Positions 1-7,129 of a stretch of 23,793 nt of DNA are shown here, one piece after another. This DNA comes from a virus: IMG/VR virus record IMGVR_UViG_3300042879_000676, positions 1-23,793 of that record. The stretch is one strand, 5' to 3'. Each line of letters begins with the position of its first letter. The first letter of the stretch is position 1. The notes below the pieces were generated by a model, which saw nothing but the letters and a program-made list of their open reading frames with translations, did no database searches and was not told the origin of the DNA. A program made the position numbers and the translations under genes.

Positions 1-1066
1 CATAACGCTGCTTGAAGCCACCCATCTTCTTCTTCATTGATAGAACATACTTTTCTTTCTTCTCAGTCTCAGCGCCAGTCAGCTTGCGCTCATCGACATT
101 CTCAACTTCTTCGGGCAACTTACCTTTAGGGCCAACTCCTACACCGGGTCTATACTTCAACTTCTTTACAGCTTTTCTAGAACCAAGTTTGGCATAAGTG
201 TCTTTAGTAATTTTGCCTGTAGCTTTATGTGCAGGAACATTTGGCAGTTTTGATGAACCATATACAGCTTTTTCGCCTTCGTCATCTTCAGGATCACTCA
301 TCGGATTTGACTTCCATGACTTACCTTCTGGACCCTTGCGCCACTTAGCAGCTTCACCAACCTGCTCGACTTCTTCATTCATACCCTTCTTACGCTTGTT
401 GACATAGTAATCGTGACCAGACGTACCCGGCCCACCGTAGCCGTGCCTCCAAGCCATAGACTGCAAAACCTTATCGGACAACTCCTTATAATGCGGATGA
501 TTTGCAAATTCCGCAGGGCTCATCTTTGAAATATTGGTTTTGTGTTTGATCGTAGAAGCAGACATACCAGCTTCATCGACATTCTCAACCTCTTCCTTTG
601 TAGTTTTTTGAGAGGCACGAACACCTTTCCGAAAAGTCATATCAAACCCAGCTTGACGCTTACGGAGTGTATTCTGTTCTTTATCATCTAGACCATCATA
701 ATCATCGGGACTATTCATCATCTTTTTGCCAATCTTTTTCATTTGCTTATTGGCTTTGTCAGTATAAGACTTTACCGTTGACTGCTTTAATTCAGTAACC
801 TGCTTGCCTTCCTTGAGCTTCGGCTCAATCTCGACCTTCTCCTTGCGAGTGCCGACGATCACCCCCATGCGGTCGCCGCTGTTCTCCTTCTTCAGAACAC
901 CGCGACCAACCAGCACGTCCTTGTGCGTGATCTTGTCCTTAGGGTGTGCAAGCTTTGCAAGCGCCTTCTCCTTTGGTGTCTCAGGAGTCGTGTGCTTCTT
1001 CTCCATGATGTCCTTAATAGCATTAAGCAGAGAATCCGAAGATCCCATTTTATGATTATTAAACAT
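1..1066 (-). CDS. Partial virion-type phage protein with EEVExVxE repeats (3' end outside window)
   Basis: The frame opens with ATG at 1066 behind a strong ribosome binding site (GGGAGAG, 4 nt spacing) and stays open for 355 codons to the window edge, so the C-terminus is missing. The protein is Lys/Glu-rich, low in hydrophobic residues and probably largely unfolded or helical. A short acidic motif occurs three times, EEVENVDE (158-165 and 319-326) and EEVEQVGE (231-238), separating blocks of basic sequence. A segment at about 91-115 (TELKQSTVKSYTDKANKQMK) resembles linker blocks I associate with internal or structural proteins of marine T4-like phages. The motif ends in V-x-E followed by A or R, similar to T4 prohead-protease sites (I/L-x-E, cut after E). 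It lies downstream of the 1036-residue protein, which carries the same kind of motif. No enzyme domain is recognised. Role as a processed head or virion protein is inferred. Confidence 0.8.
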   Translation of the reverse strand, partial: MFNNHKMGSSDSLLNAIKDIMEKKHTTPETPKEKALAKLAHPKDKITHKDVLVGRGVLKKENSGDRMGVIVGTRKEKVEIEPKLKEGKQVTELKQSTVKSYTDKANKQMKKIGKKMMNSPDDYDGLDDKEQNTLRKRQAGFDMTFRKGVRASQKTTKEEVENVDEAGMSASTIKHKTNISKMSPAEFANHPHYKELSDKVLQSMAWRHGYGGPGTSGHDYYVNKRKKGMNEEVEQVGEAAKWRKGPEGKSWKSNPMSDPEDDEGEKAVYGSSKLPNVPAHKATGKITKDTYAKLGSRKAVKKLKYRPGVGVGPKGKLPEEVENVDERKLTGAETEKKEKYVLSMKKKMGGFKQRY

Positions 1067-1081
1067 TTTACTCTCCCTTGG

Positions 1082-1315
1082 TTAACGTGAAATTTCTTCC
1101 CAGTCCATTGATCCGTAGACACCCTCATTATTAGTTTTAGCTGCAAGCACAAGAGAAATCTCAAACGGCGTTCCGGTCAAACTGTTTCTCTCTAGCTGAA
1201 AGCTGAATAGTGCTTCTTTGAGAATATCCACAGACACGCTGGTGCTTTGCGTCGCCGTAAAGTAACCAGAGGCAAGGATTCTACCACCTGAGGTGCCATT
1301 TACCAAGCCTTGCAA
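1082..1315 (-). CDS. Small conserved-looking phage protein, non-ATG start overlapping upstream gene
   Basis: This 77-codon frame (TTG at 1315) ends with TAA 15 nt before the next gene. Its sequence looks like real protein rather than a shadow: a Gly/Ser/Thr-rich beta-type start (NGTSGGRILASGYF), then KEALFSFQLERNSLTGTPFE, ending DWEEISR. It lies in the -1 frame relative to the upstream 1036-residue gene and overlaps its last codons. No ATG exists in this frame near the start. The frame stays open upstream to a stop about 30 nt further on, so a CTG at 1336 (AGGG 5 nt before it) is an alternative start. Expression probably depends on translational coupling with the upstream stop, or on a frameshift; no classic slippery heptamer is visible. 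Function is not recognised. Its place between two virion-type genes suggests a structural role. Confidence 0.6.
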   Translation of the reverse strand: MQGLVNGTSGGRILASGYFTATQSTSVSVDILKEALFSFQLERNSLTGTPFEISLVLAAKTNNEGVYGSMDWEEISR

Positions 1316-4300
1316 GACCAGTAGCGCGGCATCCAGCGCGGCCCTGGGTTATCGCAGTTGTGGCGCGCGCGAAAATTGCTGCGGCGACCCGGAATGTTCT
1401 TCTTGATCGTCATATTGGGGTCACCAAAGCGAACGATCACAACCTTACCAGCACCGTTTGTCGTATAGACAGCCGACTTCTTAGGGCCACCAGGTGTGCG
1501 GAATGGCTTGTTCAGAGTTACCTTGCGACCTTGATATTCAGCCTCGGTGATCTCCAGCCCCTCTTCGACATCATCGCACTGGCAGTTGCCACCGCAACCA
1601 CAACCAGCATCATCTTCCTCTTCAACTGAAGGATGATTCGCATAACCAAATTGTGCGCGAATGCCTAGCTGTTGAGCCGTTGGTGCATCCATGATCCCAG
1701 GAGTGAAATCTTCGGATAGCTCTTTCTGCTCACGAATACCAGCTAGTGCCTTGCGGACATCCTTGTACGTCTGTGGTGATTTACCTGGGTCCTTAGCTTC
1801 CTGAGTCTCCCACGGTACAGGCGCAAGATAGCGCATATCTTGTTTAGATTCATTTTGACCAGGTGTGTCCTTCTTATAGATGCTTACAACTGAGTCTGTC
1901 CCAGTCTCACGATGACGCGGGTTTGGGTCACCCTCTACGCGAACTCGCTTGTGAACCTTGCGATAGACTATGCGACCATCAGGTAGTTTCTCTTTCTTAT
2001 ACTCAAAGTCGGCTGCGCGAACAATCTGTCCGAATGCTTCATTGACAGACTCCTTGCGAACTCTAGAAGCTAGATCCTTGTCAGCGCCACCCCAGGTACC
2101 CTTACCCTTCGTGATAAACGAATTGACGCGCGCATATGCCCACTGTTGCTGATTTGCACCAGGGCGATGACCCGTCTTCCATGCAGCCATACCACGATTA
2201 TAAACCTGACGAAGAATGCCAATCGGGATACCAGACTTCTCGGCCTTCTTAGCGAGACCTTGATCGGCCGCTTCTTCGACCGAAATCTTTGGCTTAACAT
2301 GTTTAATTAGTTTACCAACTTTACGATCTTTGACTGGGTCTTTACCATTGTATTCGTGTGTTCTAGTTTCATAGTGATCCATACCATCATCATCGAGGTG
2401 ACGTACACTATGAGTTATCTTTGAACCATCAGAGGATACATGAATGGACTGCGCCCGCCCATGCTTATCTTCTAAATGCTTTTTGACATGAGCTGGGACC
2501 CTCCAGCTCGCATTTCCGTCCTTAGTTGCTTCTGCAATTCGCTCGACTTCTTCACTGCGCTGCATCATTTTCTTGCGGAGATCCTGAACCTTCATTGCTT
2601 CGCGCTCCCTATCGTGCTTTCTATCTAGAGTCTCTTTTTCTCTACGTTGTTTATCCGCCACTAGCTTTGATGGCATGTCTGCTGATTCAAGATCATAGCG
2701 TGATGTTGGTACTGCGTGACCTAATGGCTGCACAGTTGGATCCAACTGAAATGGTACTACATTCTTGAATAGATTTCTATAGCCTGCGGCCTCTGAGAAT
2801 TCTTCGAACTTCTTATTGTAAGATGCAGACAGATATGAATATCTGACAGGCAGCTCAGGTGGGTTGAACTGCACATCATTTGCATTGTAATTGTCACCAA
2901 ATTGCTTGCGATACTTCAGAGTATGCACGCTAGTCTTTGTCTTTTTGTTATCACCAGGTGCCGACTTATATGCGCTCGGGTCGCTATCAGACATCTTTGT
3001 CTGTCTGTTGAATTGTGCAGCGCGAGCAGCGGCGGTGCCTTTGCCTAACCCAGCAAAATATTTGCGGCTTTCCAATGATAGCTCCTTGTCACCAAGATCG
3101 GCGCGTGCAGACCATAGTCTCTGTAGATCGCCGCGCGCACGTAGCAGCTTATACACTATATTCTCGACGCTATATTCGCCACCCTTAGCAAGTCCTGAGC
3201 TACGCATCTGACGTAGCTCGGCCAGTAGTGACTCAATCTCTGTTGCATCATTTGATCTTACGGCCGTATCAATCTCATCTTTGTATTGACGATACTTGCT
3301 ACGAACGCTAACGTCATCCATTGACGGCTTCTCATTCGTCGGGTGCTTGACCCACTTGTCATTCATAATGCTATAGACACCAGAGCTAACCGCTGGCTCC
3401 TCAGTCGGCTCGATGTATAGCTCGACCTCAAACCCGCGAATGTGGATCTTGTGTGTCTGGTTCCATAGGCTTTTCTTTGCATCAAATAGCTGGCGCATAT
3501 ATGCGCGCATTGATGCTCCACCCTTTAGCTTCACAACAACATGCAGGTCTATGTCGCTATGCTGCGTGTAGTGATAGCTTGCATTTGAACCTGTAAAGAC
3601 GATGTCCTTGACATCAAGCGGGACACCAACAAAGCGAATGAAGCTGTCAGCAATCTTGCGTAGCTGAATGCGAACCTCAGGCATGATGCGATCATCTGCA
3701 AACAGCGACGGGTTAAGCTCATCATGGGTACCGATGGCTTCGCTTGACTTGGGTTCGTCATCACCGTCTGGGTCATCTTCACGCTGTAGAGATAGCGCAC
3801 TCTCGGGCGGTACGCGATCTGCTGGTGTGAATGCTGATGTACCGCCACCAAACATATCATATTCTTCAACATGACCCATACCAGTGCGCACCATCTTCAT
3901 CACCCTATGTGCCGATGAGCGTAGCTTTTCTGGTAGGCCTGACTTGAAGCCTTCGTGATTGTTGTTCTTTGCATGTTCGCGCATCTTGGATGCTGACATG
4001 CCTTCAGCGCCTTCAGCGTCCGGGTCACGCTCGCCCGCAGAATGAACATGAATCTTGTCAAAGTGATATTCTTTTCCGTTGTAGCGATGCAGAAGCTCAT
4101 GCATTTCTTTGTGGCGATCACCACCGACAACAACGTGAACCTCTTTGCGCCCCTGCTTGTGCAGATGCTTCATCACATCGATGATAGTCTTATGTGGCCC
4201 AGACTTGACAGAATCACCAAAGGCCTTGCGAGCAAGCCCGACCTTCTGCGCGTGGGAGAGTGGGTTCTTTTTGCGATCCTGAGTGTGAGATAGGTGCACC

Positions 4301-4410
4301 TCGGCATCTGCGCCGTGCTTCTTTGCTGTAGAGTGTAGATGATCTACTAGCTTCTGATGACCTATGGTCGGCGGGTTCATACGACCGAACGTAATAGCAA
4401 CAGGCTTCAT
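1300..4410 (-). CDS. Large multidomain virion-type protein: cytidylyltransferase-like, Pol-beta-type nucleotidyltransferase, DUF5824-like and C-terminal FRARHNC module
   Basis: 1036 residues from an ATG behind GGGAGGG. Residues 1-180 form a cytidylyltransferase-like Rossmann domain, with (T/H)xGH at 15-18 (TIGH) and an ISxxxxR-like SASKMR at 139-144, as in NMN adenylyltransferases. Residues about 235-450 hold a Pol-beta-superfamily nucleotidyltransferase: GSN at 274-276 and SDIDLH at 285-290, with D286 and D288 as metal ligands and a possible third carboxylate in FEVEL (327-331). Residues 715-787 (VYNRGMAAWKTGHRPG, WAYARVNSFITKGKGTW) resemble the DUF5824 family. A cysteine cluster CGCGGNCQC lies at 937-945. 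The last 80 residues (VRFGDPNM ... RRSNFRARHNCDNPGP ... YWSCKAW) match a C-terminal module I know from many T4-like phage virion proteins. Between domains are I/L/V/F-x-E-A strings (E540, E627, E713, E791, E956) that look like prohead-protease sites. Domain calls are firm for both transferases. Substrates and packaging are inferred. Confidence 0.85.
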   Translation of the reverse strand: MKPVAITFGRMNPPTIGHQKLVDHLHSTAKKHGADAEVHLSHTQDRKKNPLSHAQKVGLARKAFGDSVKSGPHKTIIDVMKHLHKQGRKEVHVVVGGDRHKEMHELLHRYNGKEYHFDKIHVHSAGERDPDAEGAEGMSASKMREHAKNNNHEGFKSGLPEKLRSSAHRVMKMVRTGMGHVEEYDMFGGGTSAFTPADRVPPESALSLQREDDPDGDDEPKSSEAIGTHDELNPSLFADDRIMPEVRIQLRKIADSFIRFVGVPLDVKDIVFTGSNASYHYTQHSDIDLHVVVKLKGGASMRAYMRQLFDAKKSLWNQTHKIHIRGFEVELYIEPTEEPAVSSGVYSIMNDKWVKHPTNEKPSMDDVSVRSKYRQYKDEIDTAVRSNDATEIESLLAELRQMRSSGLAKGGEYSVENIVYKLLRARGDLQRLWSARADLGDKELSLESRKYFAGLGKGTAAARAAQFNRQTKMSDSDPSAYKSAPGDNKKTKTSVHTLKYRKQFGDNYNANDVQFNPPELPVRYSYLSASYNKKFEEFSEAAGYRNLFKNVVPFQLDPTVQPLGHAVPTSRYDLESADMPSKLVADKQRREKETLDRKHDREREAMKVQDLRKKMMQRSEEVERIAEATKDGNASWRVPAHVKKHLEDKHGRAQSIHVSSDGSKITHSVRHLDDDGMDHYETRTHEYNGKDPVKDRKVGKLIKHVKPKISVEEAADQGLAKKAEKSGIPIGILRQVYNRGMAAWKTGHRPGANQQQWAYARVNSFITKGKGTWGGADKDLASRVRKESVNEAFGQIVRAADFEYKKEKLPDGRIVYRKVHKRVRVEGDPNPRHRETGTDSVVSIYKKDTPGQNESKQDMRYLAPVPWETQEAKDPGKSPQTYKDVRKALAGIREQKELSEDFTPGIMDAPTAQQLGIRAQFGYANHPSVEEEDDAGCGCGGNCQCDDVEEGLEITEAEYQGRKVTLNKPFRTPGGPKKSAVYTTNGAGKVVIVRFGDPNMTIKKNIPGRRSNFRARHNCDNPGPRWMPRYWSCKAW

Positions 4411-4456
4411 TTACCCTCCCACGCACTGGTTTTCCGTGGACTATACAGTGCTTCCC

Positions 4457-4464
4457 TATTTAGG
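4457..4464 (-). promoter_or_regulatory. T4 late promoter-like element (CCTAAATA)
   Basis: The core TAAATA of the T4 late promoter consensus TATAAATA is present about 50 nt upstream of the ATG at 4410, in the only gap of this part of the window. It sits in a small palindrome (TCCCTA-AA-TAGGGA). Six of eight positions match, so the assignment is tentative. A sigma70-like TATAGT follows at 4439-4444 but lacks a -35 hexamer at normal spacing. Confidence 0.4.
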
Positions 4465-4468
4465 GATT

Positions 4469-5641
4469 TTAGCGCCTTGTGGCTAGTAAATTAGCGCGAC
4501 TGAATTCACCGCGATCAACTAGCTTAGTCGGTGCACCATCTTTGATTGCGACAAAGCCTTCAGGCTTGGCGCGCTGGCCACCGATGGTGTGCTGAAATGG
4601 TCCTGGGTTAGATGACAGTGCACCAACCAATACATTCTTAGCATTTTGCAGATGATGATGCACCTCAAATGCACGATCAATATGATGCGAATTTGCATCA
4701 AGATGATCTAGCGCATCTTTCAATTCTTGCTGACGCACCGAGCGAGCTTTGTCTGTCTTTAGGGTGGACATCGCCTTTGCATATCTGGTAGTAACATACT
4801 TCTTCAGCCCGTCAGTTGTAGGCTTAGTGCCCTGACGCACGGTATCATTAATATACATCTTGATATGATCGCGGTGTCTCTCTACAGCTTTGTGTGATGC
4901 TGGCGTCATTTGAGACGCAGCAGCCTTAGCCTTTTTGATGTGCGATTCATATTCGCGTTCTTGCGCGGTAGTGTAACCAGTACGCTCTACTGGGTGCTCA
5001 ACCGATATCATATGCACATCATTATGTTGCTTGAATGCGTTTTCGTCGGGGTCGAATGACGCCTTCATTGTCTGTAGTGTTGAACCAGTATAACGTGTAT
5101 GAACGGCTACACCTATTTTCGATTTAGCAATCTTCTTTCCGATAGAGCTATCTTTCGGTGTAGAGTATGTGATGGTGTTAGGTTTGAAATTGAGATTACC
5201 GTCTTGCTCTTTTACATCTTCAGGTGTATGCATAATGTCACCCTGAAACACTTGACCCTTTGGCGTCACCTTTGATAGATGTGCGAGCGCAGCCTTTAGC
5301 TTGGAAACAAGCCCTGGCGCATGACCATGATTGGCTACAATATCTTCGTCGGTGTAATTCAGCTTGGGTGTAACGTTGAATGCAGATTTTGATGCGACGA
5401 AAAACTTCTTGTTCTCTGGGTGATAACCGAATACGATTGATGGTGACCCATCGTATTTCATTGTCACCTTTACTTTGCTATCTTTTCGTCTTAGCTGATC
5501 ATGTACGCCATTTAGCGTATCAACTGCGTGCTTGAAACCTACTGCACCCAGATTGATGTGATGATCCTCAGCATGTTCTAGATGCTTTAGCTTGTCATCT
5601 GACGCGACTGATTCAGCTAGAAAATTTCTAAATGCTAACAT
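4469..5641 (-). CDS. DUF6267-like protein with DNA/RNA ligase-type nucleotidyltransferase motifs
   Basis: 390 residues from ATG 5641, which overlaps the upstream stop as TAATG; a GTG at 5647 is an alternative. I associate the sequence with DUF6267, a phage family of unknown function, from memory. It shows the motif order of covalent nucleotidyltransferases (DNA/RNA ligases, capping enzymes): motif I KYDG (62-65, K62 as candidate acceptor of the nucleotidyl group), a motif III-like VFQGDIMH (131-138), a motif IIIa-like IGVAVHTRY (176-184), motif IV PEGFVAIKDG (360-369) and a motif V-like TKLVDR (372-377, K373). A long helical, His/Lys-rich stretch (about 225-345) separates IIIa from IV, an insertion unlike compact ligases. 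The N-terminus MLAFRNFLAE-S resembles the T4 capsid-targeting sequence with glutamate at position 10. Ligase-like chemistry and packaging into the head are inferences. Confidence 0.8.
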   Translation of the reverse strand: MLAFRNFLAESVASDDKLKHLEHAEDHHINLGAVGFKHAVDTLNGVHDQLRRKDSKVKVTMKYDGSPSIVFGYHPENKKFFVASKSAFNVTPKLNYTDEDIVANHGHAPGLVSKLKAALAHLSKVTPKGQVFQGDIMHTPEDVKEQDGNLNFKPNTITYSTPKDSSIGKKIAKSKIGVAVHTRYTGSTLQTMKASFDPDENAFKQHNDVHMISVEHPVERTGYTTAQEREYESHIKKAKAAASQMTPASHKAVERHRDHIKMYINDTVRQGTKPTTDGLKKYVTTRYAKAMSTLKTDKARSVRQQELKDALDHLDANSHHIDRAFEVHHHLQNAKNVLVGALSSNPGPFQHTIGGQRAKPEGFVAIKDGAPTKLVDRGEFSRANLLATRR

Positions 5642-6552
5642 TACCACGGGTCCCCCGAAAGCTTCATAGAAGACGCCATCTTTTCAGATTCAAATTTAAA
5701 ACGAATTTTCATTATTTTCTTAGCCCCAGCTCTTACACCTATAGAATCATTTCCAACCTTTTCTAAGGTTACTTTATACTTTTGTAATGCACTTAACTTT
5801 TCGTTTTCTGTTGGGTCCATAACTGATGCAGCATAAGGCGGCTTATTACCCTGACCCGTAACTTTAATGTAGGGTGGGTACATTAAATCGGCATCCATCC
5901 AATCTTTCGTCAGATATTTTATTAACTCGGGTTGTTTCATCTTTAACATTCTAGCGAGCAAAATATCTCTGAGACTTGAAAGAAGCTTAGAACCAATCTC
6001 TTCAGTTTTTTGTTTTATACCAGCGTTTGCTCTTATGTAAGTTTTTCTTTCTGATGTGCTTTCTGGTAGTTTAAATTTTTTAATTGTTGTCTCTAAAACT
6101 TTTTTATATTCTGCGGCAAGATTAAGTTTTAAACTTGTATCTACAGTACCAACGCCAGGGTTTTTAAACCCAATGTCACCTTTTGTTTTTGTTGCTTTCG
6201 CCGAAAGACCAAGAAACCCATCATTTGGGCCACTAGTGAATTTGATTAATATGTCAGTTGGGTTCTTGCTTTGATCTACGGGTCTACCTACAGCAGCTTG
6301 CATCGACCCAGGTCTAGCAGTCCACCAAACAGTTTTTACAGTACCAGAATAACCATTTTTCTTTGCCCAATCTTTAAAAGCTTTTGCCATTACTTCAGCT
6401 TTACCGATGGCGTCAGCAACCTCAGCAGCTTTGGCCTGCTTTACTCTATTGTTAAATTGTATCTTGGCTTGCTCATCATACCATTTTTTATTGGCTAAAA
6501 AGTAGCCAATTTGAATTTCATTTATGTCTGAGAGTATTGTGTTTTGTGTCAT
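5641..6552 (-). CDS. Conserved phage protein of unknown function, possibly nuclease-like
   Basis: 303 residues, ATG 5 nt after the stop of the upstream ADP-ribosyltransferase-like gene, with its own stop overlapping the next start (TAATG). An N-terminal helical region with a WYDEQ segment (24-28) leads to a central region with VKTVWWTARPG, then NPTDILIKF and, after about 12 residues, FLGLSAKATKTKGDIGFKNPG. The D ... S-x-K spacing and the flanking hydrophobic strands resemble the core of PD-(D/E)XK nucleases with serine in place of the acidic residue, which is weak evidence. A C-terminal region contains YPPYIKVTGQG and a strand-rich end (KKIMKIRFKFESEK). The base composition is more AT-rich than that of the neighbours, with long T runs on the plus strand, which may indicate different ancestry. 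I recall similar proteins in marine T4-like phages but no established function. Confidence 0.75.
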   Translation of the reverse strand: MTQNTILSDINEIQIGYFLANKKWYDEQAKIQFNNRVKQAKAAEVADAIGKAEVMAKAFKDWAKKNGYSGTVKTVWWTARPGSMQAAVGRPVDQSKNPTDILIKFTSGPNDGFLGLSAKATKTKGDIGFKNPGVGTVDTSLKLNLAAEYKKVLETTIKKFKLPESTSERKTYIRANAGIKQKTEEIGSKLLSSLRDILLARMLKMKQPELIKYLTKDWMDADLMYPPYIKVTGQGNKPPYAASVMDPTENEKLSALQKYKVTLEKVGNDSIGVRAGAKKIMKIRFKFESEKMASSMKLSGDPW

Positions 6553-6557
6553 AATAC

Positions 6558-7097
6558 TTACTCAAACTGTTTCATGTAGCCTTCGATAAACTCGGGCGGA
6601 ATAGGCTTCTTAAATCGAACCTCTGTGGCAGCATAATATTCTGAATCAAACTTATCTGGGTTCTTAGCAACCCACTTTGCATATTCGTTTCTGTCCATCA
6701 TATGCTTCTTGGCATCACCCATATTACCACGCAGTTCGGCGTCCATGTGACGCTCTGCCCAGTCTGCGGGGATTTTCAGTTTGATGACAGATCGCTGACT
6801 ATGAGGAACACCAACTGCCTTTGAACCAGCGCCTCTGAAATTTGCTTCGCCACCTGCGCCAGACATAGAAGCATATGCGTGCGCTGTTCTAGCATCGGGT
6901 GTAGTAGAATACATTCCAGTCTTAGGGTCGGGTCTATTGATACCCGACTTTAACATCGACTGAACATTGCGGTCATGGGTGCCGTGATAGAGAATGTAGT
7001 GATCACCTTCTCTCCACCACCCACGACGCTTAGTCGTTTTATCAAATGGTAGTCTCTTAGCTTCTACCTGTTCTGTTAACCATCTTTTGAACGACAT
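6558..7097 (-). CDS. Predicted ADP-ribosyltransferase (H-Y-E class) with capsid-targeting-like N-terminus
   Basis: 179 residues. ATG 7097 is chosen over the in-frame GTG at 7103 because AGAGG lies 5 nt upstream of it. The core fits the diphtheria-toxin/PARP-like ADP-ribosyltransferase fold: YHGTHDRNVQSMLKSGI (37-53, H38 as NAD-binding histidine), then MYSTTPDARTAHAYA (62-76, Y63 or Y75), and late ATEVRF (157-162, E159 as the catalytic acid). The same fold includes RNA 2'-phosphotransferases (KptA/Tpt1), a possible alternative. T4 carries ADP-ribosyltransferases (Alt, ModA, ModB) that modify host RNA polymerase and other proteins; those are R-S-E type, so this would be a different branch. The N-terminus MSFKRWLTE resembles T4 internal-protein targeting peptides. 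A late promoter-like box lies about 25 nt upstream. The fold is likely; target and packaging are inferred. Confidence 0.75.
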   Translation of the reverse strand: MSFKRWLTEQVEAKRLPFDKTTKRRGWWREGDHYILYHGTHDRNVQSMLKSGINRPDPKTGMYSTTPDARTAHAYASMSGAGGEANFRGAGSKAVGVPHSQRSVIKLKIPADWAERHMDAELRGNMGDAKKHMMDRNEYAKWVAKNPDKFDSEYYAATEVRFKKPIPPEFIEGYMKQFE

Positions 7098-7121: not shown

Positions 7122-7129
7122 TATTTATG
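7122..7129 (-). promoter_or_regulatory. T4 late promoter-like element (CATAAATA)
   Basis: CATAAATA matches the T4 late consensus TATAAATA at seven of eight positions. It overlaps the stop codon of the 7125-7544 gene. Transcription starting some 7 nt downstream would leave a short leader with AGAGG before ATG 7097. This is the best late promoter candidate in the window and marks the switch from early/middle genes to the virion-type block. Confidence 0.55.

What the first reader, a model, noticed from the sequence alone, without database searches (positions are those of the whole stretch)
4469..7097. Two enzymes with T4-like capsid-targeting N-termini: candidate injected ADP-ribosyltransferase and ligase-like protein
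The protein from 5641 begins MLAFRNFLAE-S and the one from 7097 begins MSFKRWLTE-Q. T4 internal proteins such as IPIII begin with a ten-residue capsid-targeting sequence (MKTYQEFIAE) cleaved after the glutamate by the gp21 prohead protease. The first candidate matches in length (E10), aromatic/hydrophobic spacing and the L-x-E cut site; the second is one residue shorter. T4 packages its ADP-ribosyltransferase Alt with the DNA. Here a different class of ADP-ribosyltransferase and a nucleotidyltransferase-like enzyme may be co-packaged and injected, with the 303-residue gene between them. Sequence match seen; T4 biology known; packaging inferred.
Basis: partly seen in the sequence, partly recalled or inferred. 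Interest (0 to 1): 0.8.

Follow-up and report, generated by a model that had tools for sequence, protein, structure and literature searches.

The report
Head-packaging tags on two phage enzymes
Two enzymes of this uncultured virus of bacteria carry the same short tag that phage T4 uses to load proteins into its head and inject them with its DNA; the tag is conserved in distant relatives, and other enzymes with it have been found in purified virus particles, so the set of injected proteins can now be read from genome sequence.

Summary
DUF6267 (5641-4469, MLAFRNFLAE|S) and the ADP-ribosyltransferase-like protein (7097-6558, MSFKRWLTE|Q) begin with a T4-type capsid-targeting sequence (CTS). Across 50 DUF6267 homologs the conserved leader columns are F4 (45/47), F/Y7 (45/47), L/I8 (46/48) and E10 (46/49). 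These are the four positions mapped genetically in T4 IPIII (4 and 7 targeting, 8 and 10 processing; PMC9026906). ART homologs down to 36% identity keep the tag. A pattern of this kind in T4 recovers ipII, ipIII, alt and gp24. In cyanophage S-CREM2, 5 of 7 tagged genes are in the published virion proteome (Fisher p = 0.013; 0.002 without structural genes). The ART fold and an H-Y-E triad are supported; DUF6267 has KxDG-type nucleotidyltransferase motifs. The 303-residue protein between them lacks the tag, but lies in a hypervariable slot where unrelated proteins in relatives often carry it. New here: the tag marks many enzymes (kinases, HAD, cytidylyltransferase), and the downstream 1036-residue protein looks like a modular polyprotein with internal [IV]xE|A sites. 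Not shown: presence in this phage's virion, cleavage, injection, substrate.

The parts
7122..7129 (-). T4-type late-promoter-like CATAAATA, about 25 nt upstream of the ART start codon; one of only two NATAAATA sites on the - strand of the window and none on the +
   Evidence: NATAAATA lies within 80 nt of 58/196 tagged genes against 135/925 other genes, p = 1.4e-6
6558..7097 (-). 179-residue ADP-ribosyltransferase-superfamily protein (H38-Y75-E159), tagged
   Evidence: AF2 pLDDT 79.5; Foldseek best KptA/Tpt1 E 7.6e-5, prob 1.0, also DarT; conserved triad; profile vs PDB best hit Tpt1 E 0.0015
7071..7097 (-). capsid-targeting leader MSFKRWLTE; predicted prohead-protease cut after E9
5641..6552 (-). 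303-residue protein, no tag; occupies a hypervariable slot upstream of DUF6267
   Evidence: no family hit; unrelated proteins, several tagged, at the same place in relatives
4469..5641 (-). 390-residue DUF6267 protein, predicted covalent nucleotidyltransferase/ligase-like (K62xDG, QGD, EGxV, K373), tagged
   Evidence: PF19782 E 1.6e-96; invariant motifs; AF2 pLDDT 91.8 with residues 1-14 below 50
5612..5641 (-). capsid-targeting leader MLAFRNFLAE; predicted cut after E10
1300..4410 (-). 1036-residue modular protein: cytidylyltransferase, NTP_transf_2-like, C, D, DUF5824, F, G, phrog_7595 modules; no N-terminal tag; candidate cargo polyprotein
   Evidence: first two modules are separate virion proteins gp154 and gp156 in S-CREM2
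2530..2532 (-). E627 of candidate internal site EEVERIAE|ATKDG, left edge of optional module D
   Evidence: module absent in L001, present in L002
2272..2274 (-). E713 of candidate internal site KISVEE|AADQG, right edge of optional module D
2038..2040 (-). E791 of candidate internal site KESVNE|AFGQ, after DUF5824
1543..1545 (-). E956 of candidate internal site LEITE|AEYQG before the phrog_7595 module; the same junction is an N-terminal tag in L071 (MFTFKQYILE|AEHQG) and an internal tag-like sequence in L019 (KKFSEFINE|AEYQG)
2..1066 (-). 355-residue protein (runs off the window) with repeated EEVE(N/Q)V(D/G)E linkers before A or R; same style as head-core repeat proteins of relatives

Best explanation
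The ART-like protein and the DUF6267 nucleotidyltransferase are head cargo of a T4-related phage. Their first 9-10 residues are a capsid-targeting sequence: the two aromatic residues dock on the scaffold core during prohead assembly, and the L-x-E end is cut by the gp21-type (S77) protease. The mature enzymes (from Q10 and S11) stay in the head and enter the cell with the DNA, where they act at once, before phage genes are expressed. The first transfers ADP-ribose from NAD+ to a host target; the second probably uses a lysine-nucleotide intermediate on a nucleic acid or protein. Shown: sequence, conservation of the four functional positions, late-type promoter, S77 protease and an L-x-E|A-like capsid-protein junction in a relative, fold and catalytic motifs, tagged enzymes in published virions of related phages. 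Inferred: presence in this phage's virion, cleavage, injection, substrates.
For: Leader columns conserved in 50 DUF6267 homologs are positions 4, 7, 8 and 10, those mapped in T4 IPIII as targeting (4, 7) and processing (8, 10) (PMC9026906). 76/92 distinct DUF6267 N-termini match; divergent ART homologs match. T4 control: a pattern of this kind finds ipII, ipIII, alt and gp24. S-CREM2: 5 of 7 strictly tagged genes are in virions by MS (gp6 SAM hydrolase, gp13, gp14 kinase, gp136, gp154 cytidylyltransferase), p = 0.013, or 0.002 without structural genes. S-SZBM1 cytidylyltransferase MRFRQFIIE|A is in virions. The S-CRM01 kinase gene annotated as PKN8 begins MISFDQFLSE|K, and PMC10665884 says serine/threonine kinases are in S-CRM01 virions. 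S77 protease E 1.2e-39 in a contig whose DUF6267 is 80% identical, with the capsid protein reading ..GLLGE|AAPANAMG. Leader disordered in the model. Late-type promoter. Unrelated proteins share only the leader, as T4 Ips do.
Against: No virion data for this phage; the window (23.8 kb, the whole held record) does not include the protease. 15 of 92 DUF6267 N-termini lack the motif, as in several cyanophages (S-SZBM1, P-HM2, S-PM2), and the untagged S-SZBM1_141 was not listed in virions, so packaging is not universal in the family. Vibrio-phage ART homologs lack the tag. Two strictly tagged S-CREM2 genes (gp30, gp175) were not in virions. The S-CREM2 authors note that non-structural proteins in virion preparations could be carry-over. 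No published peptide with a mature N-terminus was found.
Confidence: 0.84

Rival explanations
1. The proteins are packaged and cut but act in head assembly or DNA condensation (as core proteins) and are not injected effectors.
For: T4 IPIII also affects head assembly; cytidylyltransferase is in the cyanophage core set.
Against: Conserved catalytic motifs; absence of the tag or gene in relatives; hypervariable upstream slot typical of arms-race cargo.
Confidence: 0.11
2. The N-termini are a tether or localisation motif for something other than the prohead core (for example the replisome or the membrane).
For: The genes lie near replication genes (gp43, UvsX, gp41), not in the head cluster; short amphipathic helices are common.
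Against: The conserved positions include the protease-specific L/I8 and E10, followed by a hypervariable linker; tagged genes are enriched in virions.
Confidence: 0.04
3. Chance resemblance.
For: The pattern is short and degenerate; it gives some false hits in T4 and S-CREM2.
Against: Conservation over 35-97% identity in two unrelated families.
Confidence: 0.01

Closest known systems
T4 internal proteins IPI-III with capsid-targeting sequence (MKTYQEFIAE in ipII/ipIII)
   Same: Same leader length, same functional positions 4, 7, 8, 10; unrelated mature parts share only the leader
   Different: T4 IPs are small proteins that inhibit type IV restriction enzymes; here the cargo are enzymes, in aquatic T4-related phages
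T4 Alt (head-packaged ADP-ribosyltransferase, MELITELFDE)
   Same: Packaged ART with a short N-terminal leader
   Different: Different ART class (H-Y-E triad, KptA/Tpt1-like fold match, 179 residues); R-S-E for Alt is from general knowledge
Virion-associated cytidylyltransferase/NMNAT, kinase and SAM hydrolase of cyanophages (S-CREM2, S-SZBM1, S-SCSM1, S-SM1)
   Same: Non-structural enzymes in virions; the S-CREM2 and S-SZBM1 examples checked here carry the same tag; cytidylyltransferase gene is next to DUF6267
   Different: The tag was not reported in the papers read; carry-over was left open by the S-CREM2 authors; DUF6267 of some cyanophages has no tag
SPN3US / phiKZ-type ejection proteins with propeptides cut at A-x-E or S-x-E
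   Same: Prohead protease removes leaders, sometimes at several sites
   Different: Their propeptides are mostly >100 residues; here 9-10
Polyvalent proteins (large multidomain virion-embedded effectors, cited in PMC9503650)
   Same: Many enzymatic domains in one injected chain
   Different: Here the modules are separated by [IV]xE|A sites and exist elsewhere as separate, sometimes tagged proteins

Membership tests
T4-type capsid-targeting sequence | Hydrophobic/aromatic residues at positions 4 and 7 (targeting) | tested here: met
   F4 45/47, F/Y7 45/47 in DUF6267; F3 and W6 at the same spacing in the ART
T4-type capsid-targeting sequence | L/I-x-E cut site ending about residue 10 | tested here: met
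   L/I8 46/48 and E10 46/49; LTE9 in the ART
T4-type capsid-targeting sequence | Leader separable from the folded domain | tested here: met
   DUF6267: residues 1-14 pLDDT < 50, then 90+, length-variable linker. In the ART model the contrast is weaker (first block 64)
T4-type capsid-targeting sequence | The phage encodes a gp21-type protease | tested here: inconclusive
   Not in the 23.8-kb record; present in two relatives, E 1.2e-39 and 1.3e-36
T4-type capsid-targeting sequence | Protein in virion with leader removed | not testable with these tools
   Needs virion mass spectrometry; tagged proteins of S-CREM2 and S-SZBM1 are in virions, state of N-terminus not reported in the text read
ADP-ribosyltransferase superfamily | ART fold | tested here: met
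   Foldseek E 7.6e-5 to KptA, then DarT and other ARTs; TM-scores low (0.3-0.4), model confidence moderate
ADP-ribosyltransferase superfamily | Catalytic triad (H-Y-E class) | tested here: met
   H38 and E159 invariant, Y75 at least 90% in 21 sequences
T4 Alt family | Sequence relationship or R-S-E triad | tested here: not met
   YHGT...E pattern instead; no Alt family hit in Pfam or PHROGs
Covalent nucleotidyltransferase / ligase superfamily | Motif I KxDG and motifs EGxV and K | tested here: met
   K62, D64, G65, E361, G362, V364, K373 invariant in 50 sequences
Covalent nucleotidyltransferase / ligase superfamily | Fold | tested here: inconclusive
   Best hits include RNA-editing ligase, Rnl, NAD+-dependent DNA ligase and capping enzyme, but E >= 0.2
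PF19782 (DUF6267) | Profile above cut-off | tested here: met
   324 bits against cut-off 27

The most novel reading that the evidence does not exclude
The genes downstream (1036 and 355 residues) are cargo polyproteins: enzyme modules joined by [IV]xE|A linkers that the prohead protease cuts inside the head, releasing a set of injected enzymes from one chain. Modules move between tagged single genes and linked chains with the cut site kept at the junction.
Probability: 0.5. Interest if true: 0.82.

Novelty: new variant of a known kind. Interest (0 to 1): 0.72.

Why it matters
If right, a ten-residue tag read from sequence gives the list of injected proteins for a large group of aquatic phages (cyanophage, pelagiphage, methylophage and uncultured relatives), most of them of unknown function. 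It explains why enzymes such as cytidylyltransferase, kinases and SAM hydrolase keep turning up in virion proteomes, and it names a new ART and a ligase-like enzyme as first-minute effectors that can be tested one by one. The full-text searches made here found no paper that reports the tag in these phages; subscription journals and preprints are not covered.

Tried and rejected
Chance match: rejected by conservation. Longer chains from the upstream GTG codons: possible, do not change the motif. Packaging of the 303-residue gene by its own tag: not supported; no common family for the slot, only a loose D...(E/S)xK signature in some members, left as a lead for a PD-(D/E)XK-like nuclease. A structured element or pseudoknot before the 1036-residue gene: predicted fold is not better than shuffles (z -1.04). 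S77 search in the window's own record: nothing, as expected for a fragment. Profile search of DUF6267 against PDB sequences: only coiled-coil-like chance hits. Enrichment of [LIVFYM]xEA in the 1036-residue protein alone is modest (5 against 1.4 expected, p about 0.01); the module-boundary evidence is stronger.

Full report
Observation. The two genes lie on the - strand, 7097-6558 (179 residues) and 5641-4469 (390 residues), with a 303-residue gene between (6552-5641). Start and stop codons of the 303-residue gene and DUF6267 overlap, and a T4-type late-promoter sequence, CATAAATA, lies about 25 nt before the first gene. It is one of two such sites on that strand of the window. The N-termini are MSFKRWLTE-Q and MLAFRNFLAE-S, as reported.

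Is it more than chance? The pattern occurs at 2/29 called genes of the window, 2/201 and 3/205 in two relatives of about 155 kb (all in the same families or cluster), against 0.04-0.19% of internal positions. In 80 near relatives of DUF6267 essentially every N-terminus has it, and in a wider set 76 of 92 distinct N-termini do. In 50 aligned homologs at 35-82% identity the conserved leader columns are F4, F/Y7, L/I8 and E10; the residues between are free, and a linker of variable length follows before the conserved domain. T4 genetics put targeting mainly at residues 4 and 7 and processing at 8 and 10 of IPIII (PMC9026906). The match is therefore to the functional positions, not only to a look. 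The ART homologs repeat this independently: MLTFKQFLLE, MLSFSRFITE, MMKSFSQFLAE, MITFKQYLRE, MISFIEYLSE. Its spacing is the same as in T4; only the offset from Met differs.

Controls. In T4 a slightly looser form of the pattern finds ipII, ipIII, alt and gp24, plus gene 61.1 and a few likely false hits; ipI has a longer variant and is missed. In S-CREM2, 7 of 155 annotated genes examined match the strict form and 5 of these are in the published virion proteome (PMC10665884): gp6 SAM hydrolase MKDFDSFLEE, gp13 MKDLHSFLTE, gp14 kinase MKRFDAFLTE, gp136 MQTFSMFFSE and gp154 cytidylyltransferase MKNFSSFLTE. Fisher p is 0.013, or 0.002 without structural genes. About a quarter of that genome was not examined. 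In S-SZBM1 the cytidylyltransferase MRFRQFIIE|A is in the virion (PMC9146016), while its untagged DUF6267 neighbour is not listed; this is one case only. The cytidylyltransferase T4-GC190 is also in S-SM1 virions (PMC3037559). The S-CRM01 kinase gene starts MISFDQFLSE|K, and kinases are reported in S-CRM01 virions (cited in PMC10665884).

Protease. The window is only a fragment. Two relatives encode an S77 prohead protease (E 1.2e-39, 1.3e-36). Their major capsid proteins show a junction of the right kind..GLLGE|AAPANAMG and ..QSLFE|ANNPTNAMG; the cut is inferred by position, not measured.

Enzymes. The ART model (pLDDT 79.5) matches KptA/Tpt1 (E 7.6e-5, probability 1.0), then DarT and other ARTs; TM-scores are low, about 0.3-0.4. 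H38 and E159 are invariant and Y75 nearly so, which fits an H-Y-E ART. DUF6267 (PF19782, E 1.6e-96) has invariant K62-x-D-G, E361-G-x-V and K373. Its model (pLDDT 91.8) has no significant PDB match, but the weak top hits include RNA-editing ligase, Rnl, NAD+-dependent DNA ligase and capping enzyme. 'Ligase-like' is a motif-level inference.

Neighbourhood. The gene just upstream of DUF6267 is a hypervariable slot. The window's 303-residue protein, G001's 309-residue one (52% identical to one in Stenotrophomonas phage DLP6), and several other families share no similarity, but many begin with the tag (MKSFKSYIKE, MISFSNFLTE, MIKFKSFLKE, MKSFDKFLRE, MQGFKTFLSE). Between some unrelated ones the only alignment is the first 14-22 residues. 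The same has been said of T4 Ip1-3 (PMC12373910). The window's own 303-residue protein has no tag. Tagged proteins in the fetched loci include an adenylate kinase, a zeta-toxin-like kinase, HAD-type and polymerase-beta-type nucleotidyltransferase proteins.

Polyprotein idea. The downstream 1036-residue protein joins a cytidylyltransferase, an NTP_transf_2-like domain, DUF5824, phrog_7595 and other modules. The first two are separate virion proteins in S-CREM2 (gp154, gp156). Module D is present in L002 and absent in L001, and its edges are ..RIAE|ATKDG and ..SVEE|AAAQG, whereas L001 reads ..KSVDE|AAAEG. The phrog_7595 module is preceded by LEITE|AEYQG here, by a tag-like sequence inside a fusion in L019 (KKFSEFINE|AEYQG) and by an N-terminal tag when alone (L071 MFTFKQYILE|AEHQG). 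This is what protease sites between cargo modules would look like. Sequence alone cannot show cutting, the 1036-residue protein itself lacks an N-terminal tag, and how it would be targeted is open.

What is known and what is new. The CTS, its use in T-even phages, packaged ARTs and virion cytidylyltransferases/kinases are known. Not found in the papers searched: the tag in these aquatic phages, the tagged DUF6267 and H-Y-E ART, and the module/cut-site arrangement. The library holds open-licence papers only.

Noticed in passing
T4 NC_000866, 18966-19130 (-), gene 61.1: Hypothetical 54-residue T4 protein begins MKTFKEFIKE|D, a good capsid-targeting sequence; may be an unrecognised internal protein.
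   Followed up: no
S-CREM2 gp12 (OR473000 10313-7704) and S-CRM01 L111:12406-12957: Virion-detected gp12 (annotated Cas9-like) has the tag-like stretch LRFASFMAE|A after a short N-terminal extension; the S-CRM01 protein has LSLDSFIKE|A after a similar start.
   Followed up: no
window 4411-4468: Gap between DUF6267 and the 1036-residue gene has GCACTG..CCACG..CAGTGC..CGTGG, which could pair as an H-type pseudoknot; ordinary fold not better than shuffles (z -1.04).
   Followed up: partly
G002:C1:114513-115331 (in L096), between portal and protease: A protein with an EEINE|ISKSTLGSYVKKA repeat sits at the T4 gp67/68 position; similar repeats are in the window's 355-residue protein and its G001 homolog, suggesting a shared head-core origin.
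   Followed up: partly
L234, L240, L247, L249, L233: DUF6267 N-termini such as MFSFKGFITK|D and MFSFKGFQTQ|D look like tags that have lost the cut-site glutamate; natural variants for testing targeting without cleavage.
   Followed up: no
L104:5719 and L105:5482 (Vibrio phages K469, Kuja): The gene before the untagged ART homolog begins MASFKQLVES / MGLFKNLVTE, another possible leader variant.
   Followed up: no
window 16984-16535 (-) and 15364-14714 (-): By eye, a Dps/ferritin-like protein and a GH19 chitinase-like endolysin; the G002 Dps-like gene lies right after the tagged cluster. Not tested with a family search.
   Followed up: no
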